DNA from: Candidatus Aramenus sp. CH1
GTDB taxonomy: Archaea > Thermoproteota > Thermoprotei_A > Sulfolobales > Sulfolobaceae
DNA length: 64,000 nt
Direction: 5' to 3'
Assembly: GCA_022678445.1 (NCBI GenBank)
Contig: JALBWU010000004.1
Span: forward strand, 1-64,000
Below are positions 24,281 to 33,029 of the stretch, piece after piece (position 1 is the stretch's first letter; each line of letters opens with the position of its first letter). The position numbers were made by a program, and so were the translations under genes. The notes under the pieces were generated by a model. It did no database searches. It was not told the origin of the DNA and saw only the letters and a list, made by a program, of their open reading frames with translations.

Positions 24281-25468
24281 ATGTTGGATTATCTGATAGT
24301 CGCAGTGAGTTTACTGGTTTCGGCGTGGAGCGCTTACAATTCCTTTTTTGCCTTCCTTGGTATTACGTGGAACATCAACGAAAATAAGGTGAGTTCTGGC
24401 CCCTCGTTCTCAATAATAATACCAGCAAAGAACGAGGAGAGGGTAATAGGAAGGCTCTTGGACAGACTGGAAAATCAAGAATACGATAGGTCAAAGGTGG
24501 AGATCATAGTGGTGGAGGACGGTTCAACTGACAACACCCTCGGAGTGTGCAAGAACTACGAGATGACATACGATAACATCAAGTGCGTCCACCTAGAGTT
24601 CTCTCCCGTACCAAACGGGAAGAGCAGGGCTCTGAACTACGCGTTAAGGATTGCTCGAGGAGAGATTATAGGTATTTACGACGCAGATACCGTTCCAAGG
24701 CTAGACGCACTTTCCTATGCAGCCTCGAAGTTCCTCAACGACAGTAACGTAGGAGCACTACAAGGTAGACTCGTCCCAATTAACGTCCGAGAGAGCGTAG
24801 TGGCTAGGTTTGCCTCGTTGGAGGAGCTCTTTTACGAGTACTCCATCTCTGGAAGGGCGAGGCTCAACCTCTTTGTCCCCCTAGAGGGAACTTGTACTTT
24901 CATAAAGAGATCTGTGCTTGAGGACGTGGGCTTGTGGAACGAGTACACGCTGACGGAGGACCTAGACTTGAGCCTAAAGATAACCTCCAGGGGATATAAG
25001 ATAGTCTATTCCCCTAACGTGATTGCTTGGAGGGAAGTGCCTACTAGTTTAAAGGCACTGATAAAGCAGAGGCTAAGGTGGTACAGGGGCCACTTTGAGG
25101 TATCGTTGAAGGTGCACAAGATCAGGCTGGACCCAAAGCTTATAGACGCCATGTTGATTATCGCAAGCCCGGTCTTCATGGTACTGAGTTTAGCTAACTA
25201 CTCCCTGGTAATTCTCTACCCCTCGCAGGTATACCTTTTTGTCACAGCCATAGTCTCGCTTGCCTCCTTTACCTCCCTAGTCCTTGCCATCATGATCTCC
25301 AGAAAACACCTAATAGAGTTCGCCTTCCCCTTCCTGTCTATCGTCTACATGAACTTCGTGGCACTCCTTAACCTTTTCGCCATGTTCATGGAGGTCTCCA
25401 AGTTTCCCAAGACGTGGGTCAAAACTGAGAGGACTGGAGGCGTTACGGTGAGGATAGATGATAGTTGA
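24281..25468 (+). CDS. family 2 glycosyltransferase with membrane segments
   Basis: A 395-residue membrane-bound glycosyltransferase. One N-terminal hydrophobic helix is followed by a GT-A domain with SIIIPAKNEE, VVEDGSTDN, the DxD motif in GIYDADT, an acidic TEDLDLSLK motif and QRLRWYRG (the QxxRW motif of processive enzymes). Three or four hydrophobic segments close the protein. It likely transfers a sugar from a nucleotide donor on the cytoplasmic membrane face. Placement after agl3 suggests a part in the N-glycan or exopolysaccharide. Its stop overlaps the Cas4-like gene by 11 bp. Confidence 0.87.
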   Translation: MLDYLIVAVSLLVSAWSAYNSFFAFLGITWNINENKVSSGPSFSIIIPAKNEERVIGRLLDRLENQEYDRSKVEIIVVEDGSTDNTLGVCKNYEMTYDNIKCVHLEFSPVPNGKSRALNYALRIARGEIIGIYDADTVPRLDALSYAASKFLNDSNVGALQGRLVPINVRESVVARFASLEELFYEYSISGRARLNLFVPLEGTCTFIKRSVLEDVGLWNEYTLTEDLDLSLKITSRGYKIVYSPNVIAWREVPTSLKALIKQRLRWYRGHFEVSLKVHKIRLDPKLIDAMLIIASPVFMVLSLANYSLVILYPSQVYLFVTAIVSLASFTSLVLAIMISRKHLIEFAFPFLSIVYMNFVALLNLFAMFMEVSKFPKTWVKTERTGGVTVRIDDS

Positions 25469-26060
25469 GCTCTTAGCTAAGATGAAATTGCAGGACTTCC
25501 TAGCCCACCAGAGGGAGGATAACACCTTTTACGTCATCGACCTCATAAGGTGCCCACTAAAGACAGAGTACGAACAAAAGTACAGGGAGGTTGCGGTTAG
25601 CCAAGCCCTTACCCCCTCTACTATCTTAGGCGAGCTGGTTCATAGGGGGCTCGAGTCACTCATCCAAATTGAAGGGTATAACGTTAGGAGCGAGGTGGAG
25701 GCGGAGAAGGTAGTCAACGTAGGGAAAGAGGTGAAGATAAAGGGAAGGTGCGACATAATGCTAGAGAAGGACGGCGAGAGGATTATTGTGGAGATAAAGT
25801 CGTCGAGAAGCGACGTAGGAATACCTCACAAGCACCACGTCATGCAACTCAGGATCTACTTGTGGCTGTTTAACGCCAAGAAAGGGGTACTATTCTACGT
25901 AACCCCGGACAGGTTCACGGAGTACGAGGTTAACGAGCCAATGGACGAGGCCTCCATCGTAAACTTGGTACAGCAGACCTTAGATAAGAACCCTTCTCCG
26001 AGATTTCAATGGGAGTGCAAGTACTGTCAGTTTTCCATAATGTGCCCGAACAAGAGATGA
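25458..26060 (+). CDS. cas4: stand-alone Cas4-like [4Fe-4S] exonuclease
   Basis: A 200-residue RecB-type PD-(D/E)xK nuclease. Catalytic residues are H62 (ELVHRG), D99 (GRCDIM), E112 and K114 (VEIKSS), with Q130 in HVMQLRIYLW. Four cysteines C32, C187, C190 and C196 should hold an iron-sulfur cluster. The positions of C32, H62 and D99 agree with the characterised SSO0001 of Saccharolobus solfataricus, a 5'-3' DNA exonuclease, which also supports this start over the ATG at 25482. No cas1, cas2 or CRISPR repeats are nearby, so this is a solo Cas4, probably with a DNA-repair or recombination role. It overlaps the glycosyltransferase gene by 11 bp. Confidence 0.88.
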   Translation: MIVELLAKMKLQDFLAHQREDNTFYVIDLIRCPLKTEYEQKYREVAVSQALTPSTILGELVHRGLESLIQIEGYNVRSEVEAEKVVNVGKEVKIKGRCDIMLEKDGERIIVEIKSSRSDVGIPHKHHVMQLRIYLWLFNAKKGVLFYVTPDRFTEYEVNEPMDEASIVNLVQQTLDKNPSPRFQWECKYCQFSIMCPNKR

Positions 26061-26090: not shown

Positions 26091-27317
26091 ATGAGAAAGA
26101 GGCCCGTAGTGCTGACCATTGCCGGAAGCGACTCCGGAGGAGGGGCAGGCCTTCAAGCTGACCTAAAGACCTTTACTGCCCTGGGCGTCTTTGGCACGAC
26201 AGTTGTAACTGGGTTGACCGCCCAGAACACCTTGGGGGTAACAAAGATCTTAGAGGTCCCCCTGGACTTCATAGAAGCTCAATTCGACGTCGTGATGAAT
26301 GACCTGGAACCAAAGTTCGCCAAAACGGGAATGCTCGCCTCAAAGGGAGTAATGGGCCTAGTTGCAAGGAAAGTTAGGGAGTATAAGCTGGGCCTAGTTT
26401 ACGATCCCGTAATGGTGGCAAAGTCCGGAGACCCCCTAGTGACGGAGGACGTAATACCCGCAGTAAAGGAGTTAATACATCTGGCCACGGTCGTTACCCC
26501 GAACAAGTACGAGGCCGAAAGGATTTTGGGAAAGAAGATAGAAAGCCTTGAGGACTTGAGGAACTCCGCCAGGGAGTTCTACAAGACCTTCTCAGCTAAC
26601 GTCGTAGTCAAAGGTGGCTCGGCCCTTGGAGGGGTAGATTACGCAGTAATAGACGGAGAGGAAATAGAGCTCAAGGGAGATGAGATAAAGACCAAGAACA
26701 CCCACGGGACTGGCGACATATTCTCCGCATCAATTACCGCCTTCCTGGCCAAGGGTTACGACTTAAAGAGGGCGATTTTAGAGGCCAAGGACTTCGTCAC
26801 TAAGGCAATAAAGTTCTCCTTGTATTTGGGCAAGGGCCACGGCCCAGCAGACCCATTTGCACCCACGGAGATGGAGGTAGAAAGAGAGAGGGCTAGGGAA
26901 GAAGCGGAGAAGCTGGTGGAGTACCTAGAGGAAAACAAGGAGGTAACCAAGAAGCTCATAGACCCGGAGGAAAAGCTCAACCTAGGAGTAATGACTAGCT
27001 ACGGCGAAGTAGCTACATTAGCCGGGGGAATCATAAGGTACATTGATTGGATAAAGGTGGACGGGCCCATTGTGGTGAACTACTACACTAACCTAGTCAC
27101 GGAGGTGCTTAGGGACGTGGGGAAGAGAGTGGGCCTCTCCGTCTCCATGTCAGACAGGATACTCAAACTGGCTGAAAGGGGAGCGATCAGGATCTCGGAA
27201 AGCGGTATAAACGCTGACGTGATAATGAGGAAAGGGAGGGCAGTCATAGTGGCGAACTCCCTTGAAGAGGTAAAGAGGCTCATAGAGGTGATAGTAAACG
27301 ATCCAAGTAGTGGGTAG
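26091..27317 (+). CDS. thiDN: bifunctional HMP(-P) kinase / thiamine-phosphate synthase ThiDN
   Basis: A 408-residue fusion. Residues 1-260 are ThiD, with the start block TIAGSDSGGGAGLQADLKT and the anion hole NTHGTGDIFSASI, which phosphorylates hydroxymethylpyrimidine twice. Residues about 275-408 are ThiN, the archaeal thiamine-phosphate synthase that replaces ThiE, with the block SYGEVATLAGGIIRYI and the end VIMRKGRAVIV. Together they join pyrimidine and thiazole to thiamine phosphate. A T-rich TATA element at about 26061-26072 predicts a leaderless start. The PfkB gene begins within its last codons. Confidence 0.93.
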   Translation: MRKRPVVLTIAGSDSGGGAGLQADLKTFTALGVFGTTVVTGLTAQNTLGVTKILEVPLDFIEAQFDVVMNDLEPKFAKTGMLASKGVMGLVARKVREYKLGLVYDPVMVAKSGDPLVTEDVIPAVKELIHLATVVTPNKYEAERILGKKIESLEDLRNSAREFYKTFSANVVVKGGSALGGVDYAVIDGEEIELKGDEIKTKNTHGTGDIFSASITAFLAKGYDLKRAILEAKDFVTKAIKFSLYLGKGHGPADPFAPTEMEVERERAREEAEKLVEYLEENKEVTKKLIDPEEKLNLGVMTSYGEVATLAGGIIRYIDWIKVDGPIVVNYYTNLVTEVLRDVGKRVGLSVSMSDRILKLAERGAIRISESGINADVIMRKGRAVIVANSLEEVKRLIEVIVNDPSSG

Positions 27318-28161
27318 TTACAACGTTGACTTCTTCATAAGGCTAAAGAGGCTTCCTCAGCCAGGGGAAACGGTGTTCTGCGATGGGATATTAATCAAGC
27401 ACGGAGGCAAGGGGTCAAACCAGGCAGTGTCCGTAGCTAGGCTGGGGGGCAAGGTCTCTTTTACTGGCGCTGTAGGGAACGACGAATACGGGAAGAGGGC
27501 CTTCTCCTTCTGGAAGGAGGAAAACGTTGACGCCAGCAGGGTAAAGGTGAAGGAAGGGAGCACTGGGAACGCCTACATTTTCCTTGACGAAAAGGGGGAA
27601 AGCTCCATTGTCGTCAACAGGGGGGCTAACTACTTGCTAGACGAGGAGGACGTCACAGACCTTGAGGGGGACGTCCTGCTGACCCAGCTCGAAATCAGGG
27701 AAAGGGTGGTGACAAAGGCGTTAAAGGAGTTTCAAGGGCTGAGGATCCTGAATCCGGCCCCCGCCTACCTAGAGGACGTCTCGATCCTGAATTACGTAGA
27801 TATCTTAACCCCAAACGAGATAGAGTTTAAACAGCTTACCTCATCCGACGACCTTGAGTTTGGACTAAACGAGCTCCTGAAAAGGGTTAAGAGAGCAGTT
27901 ATAGTCACACTAGGGGAGAGAGGTGCCGTGATAGCCACAAGGGGGAAAAGAGTCCTTATATCCGCGCCTAAGGTAAAGGTGGTAGACGTTACTGGAGCTG
28001 GGGACGTGTTCAACGCGTCCCTTGCCTTTTTCCTGGAAAATGGTTACGACATAGAGGACGCCGTAGAGTACGCCGTCAAGATAGCTTCCTATTCCGTTAC
28101 TCAGCTGGGCGCTCTTGGACCAAGGTGGGAGGAGGTGAAGGAGTTTGTCCAAGAAAAGTGA
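27310..28161 (+). CDS. PfkB/ribokinase-family sugar kinase
   Basis: A 283-residue kinase of the ribokinase family. The substrate lid block HGGKGSNQAVSVARLGG is near residues 35-51, and the anion hole with catalytic Asp is VDVTGAGDVFNAS near 226-238. The only usable start is GTG at 27310, since an in-frame stop sits at 27295; this leaves the first strand as GSYNVDFF, a few residues shorter than most relatives. It overlaps thiDN by 8 bp. Substrate could be ribose, fructose, 2-keto-3-deoxygluconate or a nucleoside; the N-terminal GSYNVD fits the ribokinase or nucleoside kinase branch. Confidence 0.85.
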   Translation: MGSYNVDFFIRLKRLPQPGETVFCDGILIKHGGKGSNQAVSVARLGGKVSFTGAVGNDEYGKRAFSFWKEENVDASRVKVKEGSTGNAYIFLDEKGESSIVVNRGANYLLDEEDVTDLEGDVLLTQLEIRERVVTKALKEFQGLRILNPAPAYLEDVSILNYVDILTPNEIEFKQLTSSDDLEFGLNELLKRVKRAVIVTLGERGAVIATRGKRVLISAPKVKVVDVTGAGDVFNASLAFFLENGYDIEDAVEYAVKIASYSVTQLGALGPRWEEVKEFVQEK

Positions 28162-28249
28162 GAACAACAAGAAGAAGGAAAAGAAAAAGGAGTACAAATG
28201 CGTAGGCCTTTGCGATATACCCGACGCAGACGAGAGGGACGACGCATGA
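28145..28249 (+). CDS. 34-residue Lys-rich small ORF between pfkB and the hydrolase gene
   Basis: An open frame from TTG at 28145 to TGA at 28249. The first half is almost all Lys, Glu and Asn; then comes YKCVGLCDIPDADERDDA, with two cysteines three residues apart and an acidic end. It overlaps the pfkB end by 17 bp, and its stop codon overlaps the ATG of the next gene in the ATGA arrangement used throughout this genome for coupled genes. That geometry is the main reason to believe it; no family is recognised. Confidence 0.4.
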   Translation: MSKKSENNKKKEKKKEYKCVGLCDIPDADERDDA

Positions 28250-28944
28250 AAATAACGTTTTTAGGGACGGGATCTGGAGCGTCGTTTGGCAGTAGGAGAG
28301 TGAAGTCGTCAATCCTAGTGGAATCTAAAGGTGCTAAGGTCCTTTTTGACCTAGGCACTGGGGCCAACTTCAAGCTGGAGGACATAGGAAAGCTCGACGT
28401 AGACGCCATATTTGTAACCCACTTGCACATAGACCATGTAAACGGGGTGTTTGAGCACTTAGTACAGAGGCAGGTAAATGGTCTGCCTAAGGTAAGAGTG
28501 TTCTCCCCTCCGGGCTTTTCAAGGCTCCTAAGGGACTTTGTAGAACTGGGAAACGACGTAGAGGCTGAGGTTGTGGAGAGCCCTTTGCCCAGAGCAACTA
28601 TAGGAGAGTTACAAATTTACTCGGTGAGGGCGTGCCACAAGATCTACGCGGTCTCATACGCGATAAGGGGTGAGGGTAAAAAGGTGGTGTACTCCGGAGA
28701 CACTTCAGAGCCCTGTAATGAAATCCTAGATGAGGCCAAGGATGCCGATCTGGTAATACACGAGGCTTCCTGCCTTTCTGGGTGCGAGAAGTTCGGCCAC
28801 ACCCCAGTTCCAACCGCAATCTCCCTATTCAGTAACGAGAAACTCATACTAACTCACATACCTGCACAAAAGGAGAAAGAAATTGTAGAATTTGTGAAAG
28901 ATAGAGTTAAATTAGCCAACGACGGAATGGTTATAGATGTGTAG
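28246..28944 (+). CDS. metallo-beta-lactamase-fold hydrolase, RNase Z-like
   Basis: A 232-residue protein beginning MKITFLGTGSGASFGSRR, the standard first strand of the fold, so the ATG at 28246 is preferred over one at 28198 that adds an Arg-rich stretch. The metal motif HLHIDH is near residue 63, later ligands are likely H138 (ACHKIYAVSY region), the Asp of YSGDTS and the final His of LTHIP. The order and spacing resemble ribonuclease Z, but it is shorter and lacks an evident exosite arm. It may process tRNA 3' ends or act as a phosphodiesterase. Its stop overlaps the amidotransferase start by 8 bp. Confidence 0.8.
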   Translation: MKITFLGTGSGASFGSRRVKSSILVESKGAKVLFDLGTGANFKLEDIGKLDVDAIFVTHLHIDHVNGVFEHLVQRQVNGLPKVRVFSPPGFSRLLRDFVELGNDVEAEVVESPLPRATIGELQIYSVRACHKIYAVSYAIRGEGKKVVYSGDTSEPCNEILDEAKDADLVIHEASCLSGCEKFGHTPVPTAISLFSNEKLILTHIPAQKEKEIVEFVKDRVKLANDGMVIDV

Positions 28945-29644
28945 GCTACTTGCCTTTAACACTAAAGGCAAACTCGACGAGAAAGTAGTAGAGACGTTCG
29001 CAGAGGTAGCAAGACATGACGTTCTCTCCTCTTCCCCCCACAGCGACGGATGGGGCATGTCTGTGTTCGTTTACGAGAAGTCATGGAGGAACATTAACTA
29101 CAAAACGGGACTGCCAGCGTTTGAAGATCCCCTATACAAAAGGCTTCCTTCAACCATTGAGGGAGAGAGGTTAGTCGGCATCATTCACGCCCGGAAAGCG
29201 GGGAAAAAGTTCTTAACAGGGCTTTCTCACTCTCACCCCTATCACGCAAAGGCGGGGACATACGAGCTTTTCTTCGCCCATAACGGCTCCATCTCTAGGA
29301 AGTTCTTTGAAAACCCATCGTTGCCCTATACCGACAGCTACTTGTTCTTCCTGGAGATAGTCAAGAGAGTCAATCAAGGCGCAACTCCCCTGGAGGCTTA
29401 CACTGAGGTCTTTGAGAGCGCTAAACCCTTTTCCTCAAGCCTCAACTCCGTTCTGATCTCCTACAGTGAGTCAGAGGGGCCAAAGGTATACGCAGGATAC
29501 TACTACAATAAGGAAAAGTTAAGAGAAAGGGAAGAGTACTACAAGGTCTTCAGATACAAGGACTATGTATTTTCATCTACACTAAAATATTATATAGGTA
29601 ACGATGCAGAAGAACTGATATATGGAGATATAATAAATTTATAG
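28937..29644 (+). CDS. class II glutamine amidotransferase domain protein
   Basis: A 235-residue N-terminal nucleophile amidotransferase. After removal of Met the protein starts with the catalytic Cys (MCRLLAF). Further family marks are SPHSDGWGMS, GIIHARKAG with the conserved Arg, and FAHNGSI with the oxyanion Asn-Gly. It resembles the YafJ-like stand-alone branch with no synthetase domain, so the ammonia acceptor is unknown. It overlaps the upstream hydrolase gene by 8 bp and ends the run of plus-strand genes before a new promoter. Confidence 0.87.
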   Translation: MCRLLAFNTKGKLDEKVVETFAEVARHDVLSSSPHSDGWGMSVFVYEKSWRNINYKTGLPAFEDPLYKRLPSTIEGERLVGIIHARKAGKKFLTGLSHSHPYHAKAGTYELFFAHNGSISRKFFENPSLPYTDSYLFFLEIVKRVNQGATPLEAYTEVFESAKPFSSSLNSVLISYSESEGPKVYAGYYYNKEKLREREEYYKVFRYKDYVFSSTLKYYIGNDAEELIYGDIINL

Positions 29645-29670
29645 TGATGATTTAATCTTTAGAACACAAG

Positions 29671-29680
29671 CTTTATACTC
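29671..29680 (+). promoter_or_regulatory. TATA box of the TnpB-like bicistron
   Basis: CTTTATACTC is centred 26 bp before the ATG at 29701, so the pair of genes that follows has its own leaderless promoter and does not depend on the upstream amidotransferase gene. Confidence 0.5.
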
Positions 29681-29700
29681 TACTACTAAAATATTGGCAT

Positions 29701-29970
29701 ATGGCAAGCAGTGTGTTAGTGGGAAGACAAGTCAAGTACTTAAGTGAGTTTGGGTTTGAGGTATCGGAGAGGCCTGTTAAGGGATACAAGATAGAGTCAT
29801 ACTACCTACCTACTAACTCTGTAAAGGAGGTGGTAGTCACCAAGATTGAAGGAGACGTCGAGAAGGAGATAGCTAGGATATCAAGCCTAGACAACATAAT
29901 GGACCTTGTTAAGGCATTTGAGGGATATCCCCAAAAACTGGTGGAGGCAATACTTCAAATTCTTAAGTGA
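29701..29970 (+). CDS. 89-residue unknown protein coupled to the TnpB-like gene
   Basis: I do not recognise this small protein. It begins MASSVLVGRQVKYLSEFGF, has a beta-rich middle (KEVVVTKIEGDVEKEIARI) and ends in two helices (NIMDLVKAFEGY, KLVEAILQILK). No cysteines or metal motifs occur. Its TGA stop overlaps the GTG start of the TnpB-like gene (GTGA), so both are made together. That makes it a candidate partner, regulator or accessory subunit of the RuvC-type protein; this is inference from gene order only. Confidence 0.65.
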   Translation: MASSVLVGRQVKYLSEFGFEVSERPVKGYKIESYYLPTNSVKEVVVTKIEGDVEKEIARISSLDNIMDLVKAFEGYPQKLVEAILQILK

Positions 29971-30809
29971 GTTTTCAGTTATTATATTTTATGAAAGAGG
30001 AAATAATCGAGGCTAGAGTTCTAGAATATGGAAAACTCAAATCCATATACAACGACATCGTGTTTTTTAAGAAGTATTCAGAAATCCTCGGGAGATCCGG
30101 GGAGAGCGTAGGGTCTCCTCCCCCCTCCCTCAGGGGGCTCCAGTTCGTTCAGAACAGGATAGGTCCCTTGAAAGTAGTAGTCCAAGGAAGAAGCGCTAGG
30201 CTCCCAGAGGTGAACGCTGTAGTGTTGCTGCCAAGGGATGGAGTACCAAAGTTTGCACTGGCAGACTTCAGCAACGGAATAAAGGTGTACTTGAGCTACG
30301 AAAAGGAGAGCCCAATTGTGGGGATTGACATAGGTCTGAGGCATCTGTTTACCGTGGTCGCGATAACTAGGGATAAACTTTACAAGACAAGGTTCTTTGG
30401 GGACAGAGAAGTTATGGAGACCTTCACCAAGTACCTTGGAGAAGAACAGGGAGTTACACACCTCGAGGAGATCAAAGTAAAGGTCAGGAGAATTGTCAAG
30501 GAGGCAACCAGCTTCGTAAAGGAGCTGGAGCCAAAGGTAGTAGCCATAGAGGACCTCAGGGAGTACGAGGGAAAAGTGGGCAAAGGGCTCAGGGTACTTC
30601 AAGACATGCTAGAAAAGGAGTTCTACAGCAACGGAGTGAGGTTTAGGAGAATGGATCCCTATAACACTTCCAAGCTCTGCTCTCACTGTGGATACAAGAA
30701 GGGCGAGGTAATGGGATCCATATTCGTTTGTCCGTCGTGCGGATATAAGGCAGATAGGGACTTCAACGCAGCGTATAACTTAGCGTTGATGTGCTACTAT
30801 GCTTGCTAA
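29967..30809 (+). CDS. compact TnpB-like RuvC/zinc-ribbon protein, probably domesticated
   Basis: A 280-residue protein with the C-terminal core of transposon TnpB nucleases: RuvC-I GIDIGLRHL (D121), RuvC-II AIEDLR (E195), a CxxC-x13-CxxC zinc ribbon (C238, C241, C255, C258) and RuvC-III DRDFNAAYNLA (D263/D265). All three acidic positions of the nuclease appear present. The N-terminal 115 residues are much shorter than the usual 170-190 and unlike the typical TnpB start, and D121 to E195 is also slightly compact. It starts with GTG overlapping the 89-residue gene, or less likely ATG at 29991. Only 34 bp separate its stop from the next gene, so there is no room for a transposon right end or a 3' guide RNA. 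It looks like a retained host gene, with RNA- or DNA-binding function unknown. Confidence 0.8.
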   Translation: MSFQLLYFMKEEIIEARVLEYGKLKSIYNDIVFFKKYSEILGRSGESVGSPPPSLRGLQFVQNRIGPLKVVVQGRSARLPEVNAVVLLPRDGVPKFALADFSNGIKVYLSYEKESPIVGIDIGLRHLFTVVAITRDKLYKTRFFGDREVMETFTKYLGEEQGVTHLEEIKVKVRRIVKEATSFVKELEPKVVAIEDLREYEGKVGKGLRVLQDMLEKEFYSNGVRFRRMDPYNTSKLCSHCGYKKGEVMGSIFVCPSCGYKADRDFNAAYNLALMCYYAC

Positions 30810-30843
30810 GCTATAAATTTCCTCAAAGGGATAGTATATCTTC

Positions 30844-31896
30844 ATGAGAGTTAAGAAACTCCAGAGCGTTCTGGAAAAGGAGAACATAGACTTTGCGATT
30901 TTTGGACCGACCAGCAACATGTTCTACCTCACGGGCTTTAGGGAGGAGCAAATGGAAAGGCCTCTGTTCTTCATAGTTAGTAAAAGGGACTACTTCTTCT
31001 TCGCCCCTAAGATCTACGAGGAACAACTGCAGAAGATGGACTTTGACGTAGTGGTCTACAGCGACGGAGAAGACCCCTACACCAAACTCGACATACCTAA
31101 AGGCGCGTCTTTTGCGGTAGACGACCAGTTATGGTCACTCTTCCTAGTAAACCTAATCAACAAGTTCTCTCCATCAAACCTACTTCCAGCATCAACCGTA
31201 ATCTCTCCTCTCAGGATGGTAAAGGACGAGGAGGAAATAAGGACGCTTAAGGAAGGGCTTAAGATCGCCGAAACGGCTTTCACGAGGTTCCTAGACGAGG
31301 TATCTGAAGGAGGCAGCGAGTGTAGACTCGCCAGGAAGCTCGAGGAGGAGTTTGTAAATCTAGGAGCTGAAGGGGCGTCCTTCGGGACAATCGTAACCTC
31401 CGGTAGCAACACCTCGATGCCCCACCTAAGGTGTACGGAGAAAAAGGTAAGAAGGGGAGACGTGATTGTAGTTGACTTTGGCGTCAGGTACAAGGGCTAC
31501 AGCACCGATACCACTAGGGTAGTGAGCTTAGGCAACCCAGGGGAGGAAGTAAAAAAGGTCTATGAAATAGTAAGGGGAGCACAGGAGGAGGCGGAGAACT
31601 CATTGGAGGGCATGAGTGGCAGTGAGATAGACTCCCTAGCTAGGAACTACATGCGCAAATACTCAGTGGACCAGTTCTTCATACACAGGACTGGGCACGG
31701 GATAGGCATAGACGTCCACGAGGAACCTTACATATCTCAAGGCTACAACAAGAAGATCACGAGGAACATGGTGTTTACCGTGGAGCCCGGCGTATATATC
31801 CCAGGGAAGTTCGGGATAAGGCTGGAGGACATGGTAGTCATGGACGGGAAACCAAGAGTGCTAAACTCACTCAGCAAGGAGATATTCACGCTCTAG
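30844..31896 (+). CDS. pepQ: Xaa-Pro dipeptidase (prolidase)
   Basis: A 350-residue M24-family metallopeptidase that splits dipeptides ending in proline. The creatinase-like N-terminal domain (1-120) is followed by the pita-bread domain. Metal ligands are visible in VVDFGVRYKGYSTDTTR (two Asp), RTGHGIG (His), FTVEPGVY (Glu) and IRLEDMV (Glu). Length matches archaeal prolidases. TATA-like CTATAAATTT (30811-30820) lies 27 bp before the ATG, so it is transcribed on its own. Its stop overlaps the convergent aminotransferase gene by 4 bp. Confidence 0.93.
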   Translation: MRVKKLQSVLEKENIDFAIFGPTSNMFYLTGFREEQMERPLFFIVSKRDYFFFAPKIYEEQLQKMDFDVVVYSDGEDPYTKLDIPKGASFAVDDQLWSLFLVNLINKFSPSNLLPASTVISPLRMVKDEEEIRTLKEGLKIAETAFTRFLDEVSEGGSECRLARKLEEEFVNLGAEGASFGTIVTSGSNTSMPHLRCTEKKVRRGDVIVVDFGVRYKGYSTDTTRVVSLGNPGEEVKKVYEIVRGAQEEAENSLEGMSGSEIDSLARNYMRKYSVDQFFIHRTGHGIGIDVHEEPYISQGYNKKITRNMVFTVEPGVYIPGKFGIRLEDMVVMDGKPRVLNSLSKEIFTL

Positions 31897-33029
31897 ACTT
31901 TATCCACGGCCTTCCTCAGTAACCTTATGCCATCCACTATTTCCTCCTCGCTGGCGACGGAAACGCTGAGCCTCGCCATCGTGTCTCCTCCCTTCAAGAA
32001 GAAGGGCTTAGCAGGGACAAAGCTTAAGCCCATCTTCACTGCCTCTTGAAACACTTTCCAGCTGTCCTTTTCTAGGTCTACTAGTTGGAAGAAACCGCAC
32101 TCGGCCTTGTTGAACTTGTGGAAGCCCTCCTCGCGCAGGACTTTGTTCATTAGCTCCAGCTTCCTCTTGTAGTGGCCTGCAAGGAGGCCCATCCTAGAGG
32201 TCACTACTTGGTTCTTCAAAAGCGTCGCCACCACGTACTGGTTTACCGTTGACGTCGAGAAGTCCAATTGCTCTAAGAGGGAGACCTTCTCGGCTATCTC
32301 CTTTTTAGCTAGCATGAAGCCTATCCTCAACCCTGGAGCGACTATCTTGCTGAAACTACTGACGTAAATTACCCTACCGTACTTGTCGTAGCTCTTAATT
32401 GGAGGAGGCACCTCTCCTGCGATTGGTCTATAGGGGTCGTCCTCGATGACGTAGAAGTCGTATTGCTCTGCTAGTTCCGCTATTTCCCTCCTCCTATCGT
32501 CGCTCATGTTCACTCCTGCTGGGTTGTGACAGTTAGGTATTACGTACAGTAGTTTTACCTTGACTAGCTTAAGTATTTGCCTCAGCTGTTCCGTCACTAT
32601 CCCCTTCTCGTCTAGGCTTATGGGAATAACCGAGGACGACCTCAGCTTGAGCGAGTTAAAGGTCTCAATGAAGGTGGGATTTTCCACTGCGATGACGTCA
32701 CCTTCAAGGAAGTACTTGCCCAGTAATTCTATGGCGTGTTGGGCACCAGAGGTGACCACTACTTCGTCTTCCCCCTTGCTTAGCCCAAGTTTAGGTAAGT
32801 ACTTCTCGATCTCCCTGACCAGCTCCTCCTGGCCCCCTGCCCCTGGATAGGAGAACGCTGACGACCTGTACTTCTCTATGACCTCGTCGTATGCCCTCCT
32901 TATCTCTTCCAGTGGGATTAGCCTAGGGTCTGGAGAACCACTGGCCAGGTTTATCTTGGACTTCCTAGCTAACCTCGAGGCCAACTCCACGGGCGAGATC
33001 TCTATTTCCTCGCCAATTCTAGACGCCAT
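31893..33029 (-). CDS. PLP-dependent aminotransferase (aromatic/2-aminoadipate type)
   Basis: A 378-residue fold-type I aminotransferase. The pyridoxal phosphate lysine is K228 in SSFSKIVAPGLRIG, with N169 (PNCHNPAG), D198 and Y200 (EDDPYR) and R236 in place. The layout is that of the MocR/LysN-like branch without a DNA-binding domain, which includes 2-aminoadipate and aromatic aminotransferases. A role in lysine synthesis (LysN) is possible as the cluster at 56-62 kb lacks that step, but broad-specificity enzymes look the same. Its start lies inside the 3' end of the cyclodeaminase-family gene (28-bp overlap), so they are co-expressed. Confidence 0.85.
   Translation of the reverse strand: MASRIGEEIEISPVELASRLARKSKINLASGSPDPRLIPLEEIRRAYDEVIEKYRSSAFSYPGAGGQEELVREIEKYLPKLGLSKGEDEVVVTSGAQHAIELLGKYFLEGDVIAVENPTFIETFNSLKLRSSSVIPISLDEKGIVTEQLRQILKLVKVKLLYVIPNCHNPAGVNMSDDRRREIAELAEQYDFYVIEDDPYRPIAGEVPPPIKSYDKYGRVIYVSSFSKIVAPGLRIGFMLAKKEIAEKVSLLEQLDFSTSTVNQYVVATLLKNQVVTSRMGLLAGHYKRKLELMNKVLREEGFHKFNKAECGFFQLVDLEKDSWKVFQEAVKMGLSFVPAKPFFLKGGDTMARLSVSVASEEEIVDGIRLLRKAVDKV

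What the first reader, a model, noticed from the sequence alone, without database searches (positions are those of the whole stretch)
29701..30809. Two-gene unit with a compact, transposon-free TnpB-like nuclease and an unknown 89-residue partner
The 280-residue protein has the RuvC acidic residues D121, E195 and the DRDFNAA motif plus a four-cysteine zinc ribbon, yet its N-terminal half is about 60-70 residues shorter than in transposon TnpB. It starts in a GTGA overlap with an 89-residue gene, has its own leaderless promoter, and only 34 bp separate it from the next gene, leaving no transposon right end or guide-RNA space. This looks like a domesticated TnpB-derived host system, perhaps with the small protein as partner and with an RNA made elsewhere or not at all.
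Basis: partly seen in the sequence, partly recalled or inferred. Interest (0 to 1): 0.78.

Follow-up and report, generated by a model that had tools for sequence, protein, structure and literature searches.

The report
Domesticated REC-less TnpB-derived nuclease of Sulfolobaceae
A gene descended from the transposon-encoded RNA-guided nuclease TnpB has become a fixed, single-copy chromosomal gene in nearly all sampled members of one archaeal family; it kept its DNA-cutting residues but lost the parts used for guide RNA and target recognition, so it probably now works as an ordinary host nuclease.

Summary
The 29701-30809 gene pair is real, but the two genes are not an obligate unit. The larger gene is a domesticated TnpB derivative. 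Full-length orthologs (40-93% identity) occur once each in 30 of 31 Sulfolobaceae genomes, and none was found in other families of the order or phylum sample, in phages, viral contigs or plasmids. All 30 form one clade, every multi-genome genus groups together, dN/dS is 0.01-0.11, and 26 of 30 keep the same upstream neighbour. The RuvC triad (D113/E187/D257) and four zinc cysteines are invariant. Compared with TnpB, the REC domain is cut from about 104 residues to about 43 (one predicted helix), the C-terminal domain is gone, and net charge falls from about +42 to +9. The codon-level guide-RNA signature at the 3' end of transposon tnpB genes (last-30/remaining-codon pS ratio 0.38) is absent (0.99). 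The true start is probably ATG 29991 (272 aa, leaderless), not the GTG overlap. The 89-aa gene occurs in only 7 of 31 genomes and is unlinked in one, so it is not a required partner. Best explanation: a host nuclease without a cis-encoded guide, probably guide-free, acting on single-stranded or branched nucleic acid. Its substrate is unknown.

The parts
29991..30809 (+).
   Evidence: 30-member alignment A1 with invariant D113/E187/D257 and four zinc Cys; Pfam PF07282 1.5e-18; AF2 model pLDDT 89.8; start by ortholog comparison
29991..30311 (+). N-terminal part: WED/OB-like barrel with the REC insertion reduced to residues 13-55 (one helix, Pro-rich loop)
   Evidence: AF2 secondary structure; ISDra2 TnpB domain limits from PMC10097598; no detectable sequence homology to TnpB before residue ~89
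30327..30329 (+). Catalytic D113 (RuvC-I, GIDIG)
   Evidence: invariant in 30 of 30
30549..30551 (+). Catalytic E187 (RuvC-II, AIEDL)
   Evidence: invariant in 30 of 30
30678..30743 (+). CCCC zinc ribbon (target nucleic acid-binding domain), C230/C233/C247/C250
   Evidence: invariant in 30 of 30; PF07282
30759..30761 (+). Catalytic D257 (RuvC-III, DRDFNAA)
   Evidence: invariant in 30 of 30
30792..30806 (+). C-terminal CxxxC that ends the protein; family-specific, replaces the TnpB C-terminal domain
   Evidence: 29 of 30 members
29962..29967 (+). TATA-like element (cttaag) at -29 from ATG 29991; overlaps the 3' end of the 89-aa gene
   Evidence: TATA-like hexamer at -27 to -31 in 29 of 30 orthologs
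29701..29970 (+). 89-aa ORF (p89), small alpha/beta protein of unknown function; lineage-restricted neighbour, not a required partner
   Evidence: in 7 of 31 family genomes, adjacent in 6, unlinked in G003; AF2 pLDDT 78, no PDB fold match below E 0.001
28937..29644 (+). Class-II glutamine amidotransferase-like gene, conserved upstream neighbour (syntenic anchor)
   Evidence: PF13230; neighbour in 26 of 30 genomes
30844..31896 (+). Xaa-Pro dipeptidase (PepQ-like), downstream syntenic anchor
   Evidence: PF00557/NF040821; within 7 kb in 21 of 30 genomes

Best explanation
The gene is a TnpB captured once in the ancestor of Sulfolobaceae and kept as a chromosomal housekeeping-type gene (shown by distribution, tree, synteny and selection). 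Its RuvC active site is retained under purifying selection, so it almost certainly still hydrolyses phosphodiester bonds (inferred from the invariant triad). It has lost the TAM-reading and heteroduplex-holding REC domain, most of the basic surface that grips omega-RNA in TnpB, the C-terminal domain and the overlapping omega-RNA (shown by comparison). It therefore most likely acts without a guide RNA (inferred). The OB-like WED barrel and zinc ribbon would dock a single-stranded or branched nucleic acid and feed it into the metal-dependent RuvC site, for repair, recombination or clearing of aberrant nucleic acid (the substrate is a guess). It is expressed alone from its own leaderless promoter and does not depend on the 89-aa protein.
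For: Orthologs full-length and single-copy in 30 of 31 family genomes, next hits in the same genomes only C-terminal TnpB matches; none in 398 phylum genomes or 197 order genomes outside the family nor in viral contigs, phages or plasmids. One clade, SH-aLRT 100, all multi-genome genera monophyletic, long stem 1.91. dN/dS 0.014-0.11. Same upstream neighbour in 26 of 30. The own genome's other TnpB remnants are almost all short or broken and its only TnpA-like match carries three stops, while this gene is intact; in G005 it is the only hit above the Pfam TNB cut-off. Triad and zinc Cys invariant. REC 104 residues/4 helices in ISDra2 TnpB against about 43 residues/1 helix here. Net charge per 100 aa 3.2 against 10.6; in the RuvC segment whose helices bind omega-RNA, +1.2 against +12.7. 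3' synonymous constraint: last-30/remaining-codon pS 0.38 in transposon tnpB pairs, 0.99 here; neighbouring genes 0.89.
Against: No biochemical, RNA-binding or knockout data. IscB and IsrB lack REC and still use a large RNA (PMC10097598), so REC loss alone does not exclude RNA guidance. A trans-encoded RNA was not searched for genome-wide. The zinc ribbon, which in TnpB binds target nucleic acid, is highly conserved, so the substrate could still be an RNA-DNA hybrid. The 'housekeeping' role is inferred; essentiality tables could not be opened.
Confidence: 0.6

Rival explanations
1. Domesticated but still RNA-guided: it binds an RNA made elsewhere (trans-encoded, or a large RNA that replaces REC as in IscB) and cuts or silences a fixed target.
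For: WED-like barrel, RuvC and TNB retained and conserved; closest fold matches are Cas12f and TnpB; REC-less IscB uses a bulky RNA.
Against: Basic omega-RNA-binding surface nearly neutralised; no overlapping omega-RNA signature; no Rfam match in 27000-33000; REC-located TAM residues have no counterpart domain.
Confidence: 0.2
2. An RNA-processing nuclease: it kept the TnpB ability to cut single-stranded RNA (TnpB processes its own mRNA) and now matures or degrades host or IS-derived transcripts.
For: TnpB self-processing of omega-RNA is described (Nety et al. 2023, cited in PMC12558985); RuvC triad intact.
Against: No RNA-binding enrichment predicted; low net charge; no partner or target known.
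Confidence: 0.15
3. A two-component system of the nuclease with the 89-aa protein, as the first reader proposed (for example toxin-antitoxin-like or nuclease-regulator).
For: Adjacent in 6 genomes of 3 genera including the deep lineage Acd1.
Against: Absent from 23 of the 30 genomes with the nuclease even by profile search; unlinked in HS-7; the nuclease has its own promoter and start.
Confidence: 0.05

Closest known systems
Transposon TnpB (IS200/IS605, IS1341; ISDra2 TnpB, SisTnpB7)
   Same: RuvC triad, CCCC zinc ribbon, WED-like barrel; residues 89-266 homologous to Sulfolobaceae TnpB (hhalign probability 99.7%)
   Different: 272 aa against about 380-450; REC reduced to one helix, no C-terminal domain, charge lost, no omega-RNA signature, no mobile context, fixed single copy
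TldR (TnpB-derived RNA-guided transcription factors)
   Same: Exapted TnpB, no longer a transposon passenger
   Different: TldR keeps RNA guidance and lacks RuvC catalysis (literature and own knowledge); this family keeps the triad and loses the REC/RNA features, the reverse trajectory; archaeal chromosome, not phage
Cas12f / Cas12m (type V effectors)
   Same: Fold; best PDB matches include AsCas12f and ISFba1 TnpB
   Different: No CRISPR array or cas operon at the locus; much smaller; no REC
RuvC Holliday-junction resolvase
   Same: RNase H-fold nuclease core; Foldseek match to T. thermophilus RuvC, TMt 0.59-0.61
   Different: Zinc ribbon and OB-like N-terminal part; sequence relationship is to TnpB, not RuvC; resolvase function untested
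IscB / IsrB
   Same: REC-less relatives of RNA-guided nucleases
   Different: Different lineage (Cas9 ancestor) with an HNH in IscB and a large upstream RNA; no such RNA seen here

Membership tests
TnpB (RNA-guided transposon nuclease) | RuvC D/E/D triad | tested here: met
   30 of 30
TnpB (RNA-guided transposon nuclease) | CCCC zinc ribbon / TNB domain | tested here: met
   PF07282 1.5e-18, four Cys invariant
TnpB (RNA-guided transposon nuclease) | REC domain of four helices inserted in WED | tested here: not met
   about 43 residues, one predicted helix against 104 residues in ISDra2
TnpB (RNA-guided transposon nuclease) | omega-RNA overlapping the 3' end of the ORF | tested here: not met
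   no 3' synonymous constraint (ratio 0.99 against 0.38 in transposon tnpB); no Rfam match
TnpB (RNA-guided transposon nuclease) | mobile context: IS ends, TnpA or multicopy spread | tested here: not met
   single copy, syntenic in 26 of 30, vertical
TnpB (RNA-guided transposon nuclease) | score above the NCBIfam guided_TnpB cut-off | tested here: not met
   64.6 bits against cut-off 100
TldR | TnpB-derived with a mutated RuvC active site | tested here: not met
   triad intact in 30 of 30
TldR | adjacent guide RNA matching a host promoter | tested here: not met
   no RNA signature and no intergenic room
Cas12 / type V CRISPR effector | linked CRISPR array or adaptation genes | tested here: not met
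   only a solo Cas4-like gene 4 kb upstream, no cas1/cas2 in the syntenic block
RuvC Holliday-junction resolvase | cleavage of Holliday junctions as a dimer | not testable with these tools
   needs biochemistry
Two-gene nuclease/p89 system | both genes co-conserved | tested here: not met
   p89 in 7 of 31 genomes, nuclease in 30 of 31

The most novel reading that the evidence does not exclude
A core-genome nuclease of an entire archaeal family that evolved from an RNA-guided TnpB by losing its guide, REC domain and RNA-binding surface while keeping catalysis: reversion of an RNA-guided enzyme to a guide-free RuvC nuclease with a housekeeping function.
Probability: 0.5. Interest if true: 0.85.

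Novelty: new variant of a known kind. Interest (0 to 1): 0.7.

Why it matters
The exapted TnpBs I know of (Cas12, TldR) keep RNA guidance and change or lose catalysis. Here catalysis is kept while the guide machinery is stripped, across a family that includes genetically tractable species. It would show that TnpB can be domesticated into a guide-independent enzyme, and gives a naturally minimal WED-RuvC-TNB scaffold, below what has been called the minimal domain set of the TnpB/Cas12 lineage. Deletion and pull-down in Sulfolobus would answer the question directly.

Tried and rejected
GTG 29967 start and translational coupling: rejected by ortholog starts and upstream stops. p89 as partner: rejected by distribution. 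A p89 fold clue: AF2 of 7 homologs gave only E 0.3-0.4 matches (AFV1 ORF157 and an engineered protein), not usable. A 5' RNA or regulatory element: synonymous divergence is low in the first 30 codons and the 60 bp upstream is conserved in some genera, but several neighbouring genes show similar 5' drops (others mean 0.90, sd 0.28), so I treat it as ordinary start-region constraint. My first idea that the gene is the only TnpB-like gene in S. acidocaldarius was wrong: the genome I take to be it (G022, by its length, from memory) has at least three longer TnpB genes. The reported omega-RNA of Saci_1941 probably belongs to one of those, judged by gene order. Literature: no description of this family found in the openly licensed library; the survey of S. 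islandicus REY15A TnpBs describes only IS605 and IS1341 groups.

Full report
What is there. The window comes from a Sulfolobaceae genome, genus Candidatus Aramenus: the same-genus genome G002, whose ortholog is 93% identical, matches the record Ca. Aramenus sulfurataquae AZ1. ORFs at 29701-29970 and 29967-30809 are as described. The larger one hits Pfam Cas12f1-like_TNB at 1.5e-18, but only 64.6 bits against a cut-off of 100 for NCBIfam guided_TnpB. The RuvC residues and the CCCC ribbon are present.

Start and promoter. Aligning 30 orthologs shows that nearly all start with M(K/N)E..(V/I)EAK at a position equal to window ATG 29991. Four orthologs have an in-frame stop just upstream, so the ATG is forced there. 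In 29 of 30 a TATA-like hexamer lies 27-31 bp before that ATG (the hexamer list was chosen after looking at the sequences). The gene is therefore probably a leaderless 272-aa gene. The GTGA overlap is a property of the DNA, not of the gene.

Distribution and history. One full-length ortholog per genome occurs in 30 of 31 family genomes over 10 of 11 genera. The exception, G004, is 79% complete. Outside the family, 398 phylum and 197 order genomes give only generic TnpB C-terminal matches. Viral contigs, phages and plasmids give only generic TnpBs, with full-stretch identity of about 30% or less. The 30 sequences are one clade (SH-aLRT 100) on a long stem, and every genus with more than one genome is monophyletic (quick method, and the program warned of long branches at the junction with TnpB). 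dN/dS in close pairs is 0.014-0.11. The gene follows a class-II glutamine amidotransferase gene in 26 of 30 genomes, with an Xaa-Pro dipeptidase or an HDAC-like gene (assigned by eye) downstream in most. In the window's own genome the other TNB matches are almost all short or interrupted and the only TnpA-like match has three stops. In G005 this gene is the only one above the Pfam cut-off. This is domestication by the usual criteria.

Anatomy. D113, E187, D257, the four Cys, R256 and N259 are invariant. AlphaFold2 on the 30-row alignment gives pLDDT 89.8 and pTM 0.72. It shows strand 3-12, a single helix 16-36, a barrel from 56 to 104, an RNase H-fold core, a ribbon and a final helix. Foldseek matches TnpB, Cas12f, Fanzor2 and, for the core, RuvC resolvase; TM-scores are modest (0.35-0.46) with high rmsd, which I read as different relative domain placement. 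In ISDra2 TnpB, WED is 1-12 and 117-176, REC is 13-116 with four helices, and the C-terminal domain is 376-408 (PMC10097598). The REC insertion therefore shrinks from 104 to about 43 residues, and the C-terminal domain is absent: the protein ends 15 residues after D257 in a CxxxC found in 29 of 30 members. Sequence homology to TnpB is detectable only from residue ~89.

Guide RNA. Three tests agree. First, net charge is +6 to +13 (3.2 per 100 aa), against +33 to +59 (10.6 per 100 aa) for transposon TnpBs sampled mostly from the same family. Second, in the RuvC helix segment that grips omega-RNA, charge is +1.2 against +12.7 (residue contacts from PMC10097598). Third, transposon tnpB pairs show the expected footprint of an overlapping omega-RNA, with synonymous divergence falling from about 0.7 to 0.22-0.32 in the last 30 codons. 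The domesticated gene shows none (ratio 0.99 against 0.38, Mann-Whitney p about 1e-5, pairs not independent), like neighbouring genes (0.89). Rfam finds nothing in 27000-33000. A trans-encoded RNA is not excluded.

The 89-aa gene. It is found in 7 of 31 genomes: adjacent upstream in Aramenus, the UBA167 genus and Acd1, and unlinked in HS-7. No family match, and no PDB fold match below E 0.001. It may be an old neighbour lost in most lineages, but it cannot be a required partner.

Mechanism. Shown: domestication, conserved active site, loss of REC and of the cis guide. Inferred: nuclease activity, and no guide. Guessed: the substrate. My preferred reading is a guide-free nuclease on single-stranded or branched nucleic acid. 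RNA guidance in trans and an RNA-processing role are the main rivals.

Known or new. No description of this family was found in the openly licensed literature, which is not proof of absence. It fails several TnpB-defining tests and all TldR tests, so I file it as a TnpB-derived domesticated nuclease, a new variant of exapted TnpB.

Noticed in passing
window 25458-26060 (+): Solo Cas4-like PD-(D/E)XK nuclease, closest solved structure 4ic1 (S. solfataricus SSO0001, E 2.7e-73), in the same syntenic block; present near the domesticated nuclease in 17 of 30 genomes.
   Followed up: partly
G000 contigs C1, C2, C6, C9, C14: The Aramenus genome carries about 20 other TnpB remnants, nearly all short open frames, and one TnpA-like match with three stops: IS200/605 elements seem decayed here.
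   Followed up: partly
window 30792-30806: C-terminal CxxxC (29 of 30 orthologs), not part of the zinc ribbon and absent from the TnpBs read here; possible disulfide or metal site.
   Followed up: no
window 29931-30080: Low synonymous divergence in the first 30 codons and a conserved 60 bp upstream in some genera (pS 0.00-0.11 against ~0.35 in two g6 pairs); mild overall and seen at other genes, left as start-region constraint.
   Followed up: yes
window 28198-28944: MBL-fold gene: longest ORF starts at 28198 but orthologs begin MKITFLGTG at 28246; weak match to anti-Pycsar Apyc1 (30.8 bits, below cut-off 50).
   Followed up: no
PADLOC model PDLC01039: A model labelled 'Csx1' matches this TnpB derivative (E 4e-18) over the RuvC/TNB part; the label looks wrong for that model.
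   Followed up: no
L200, L201, L190, L195, L196, L199, L203: Transposon tnpB genes of Sulfolobaceae, including the TnpA-less ones (L190/L195/L196), show a strong 3' synonymous constraint, suggesting they too encode overlapping omega-RNAs.
   Followed up: partly
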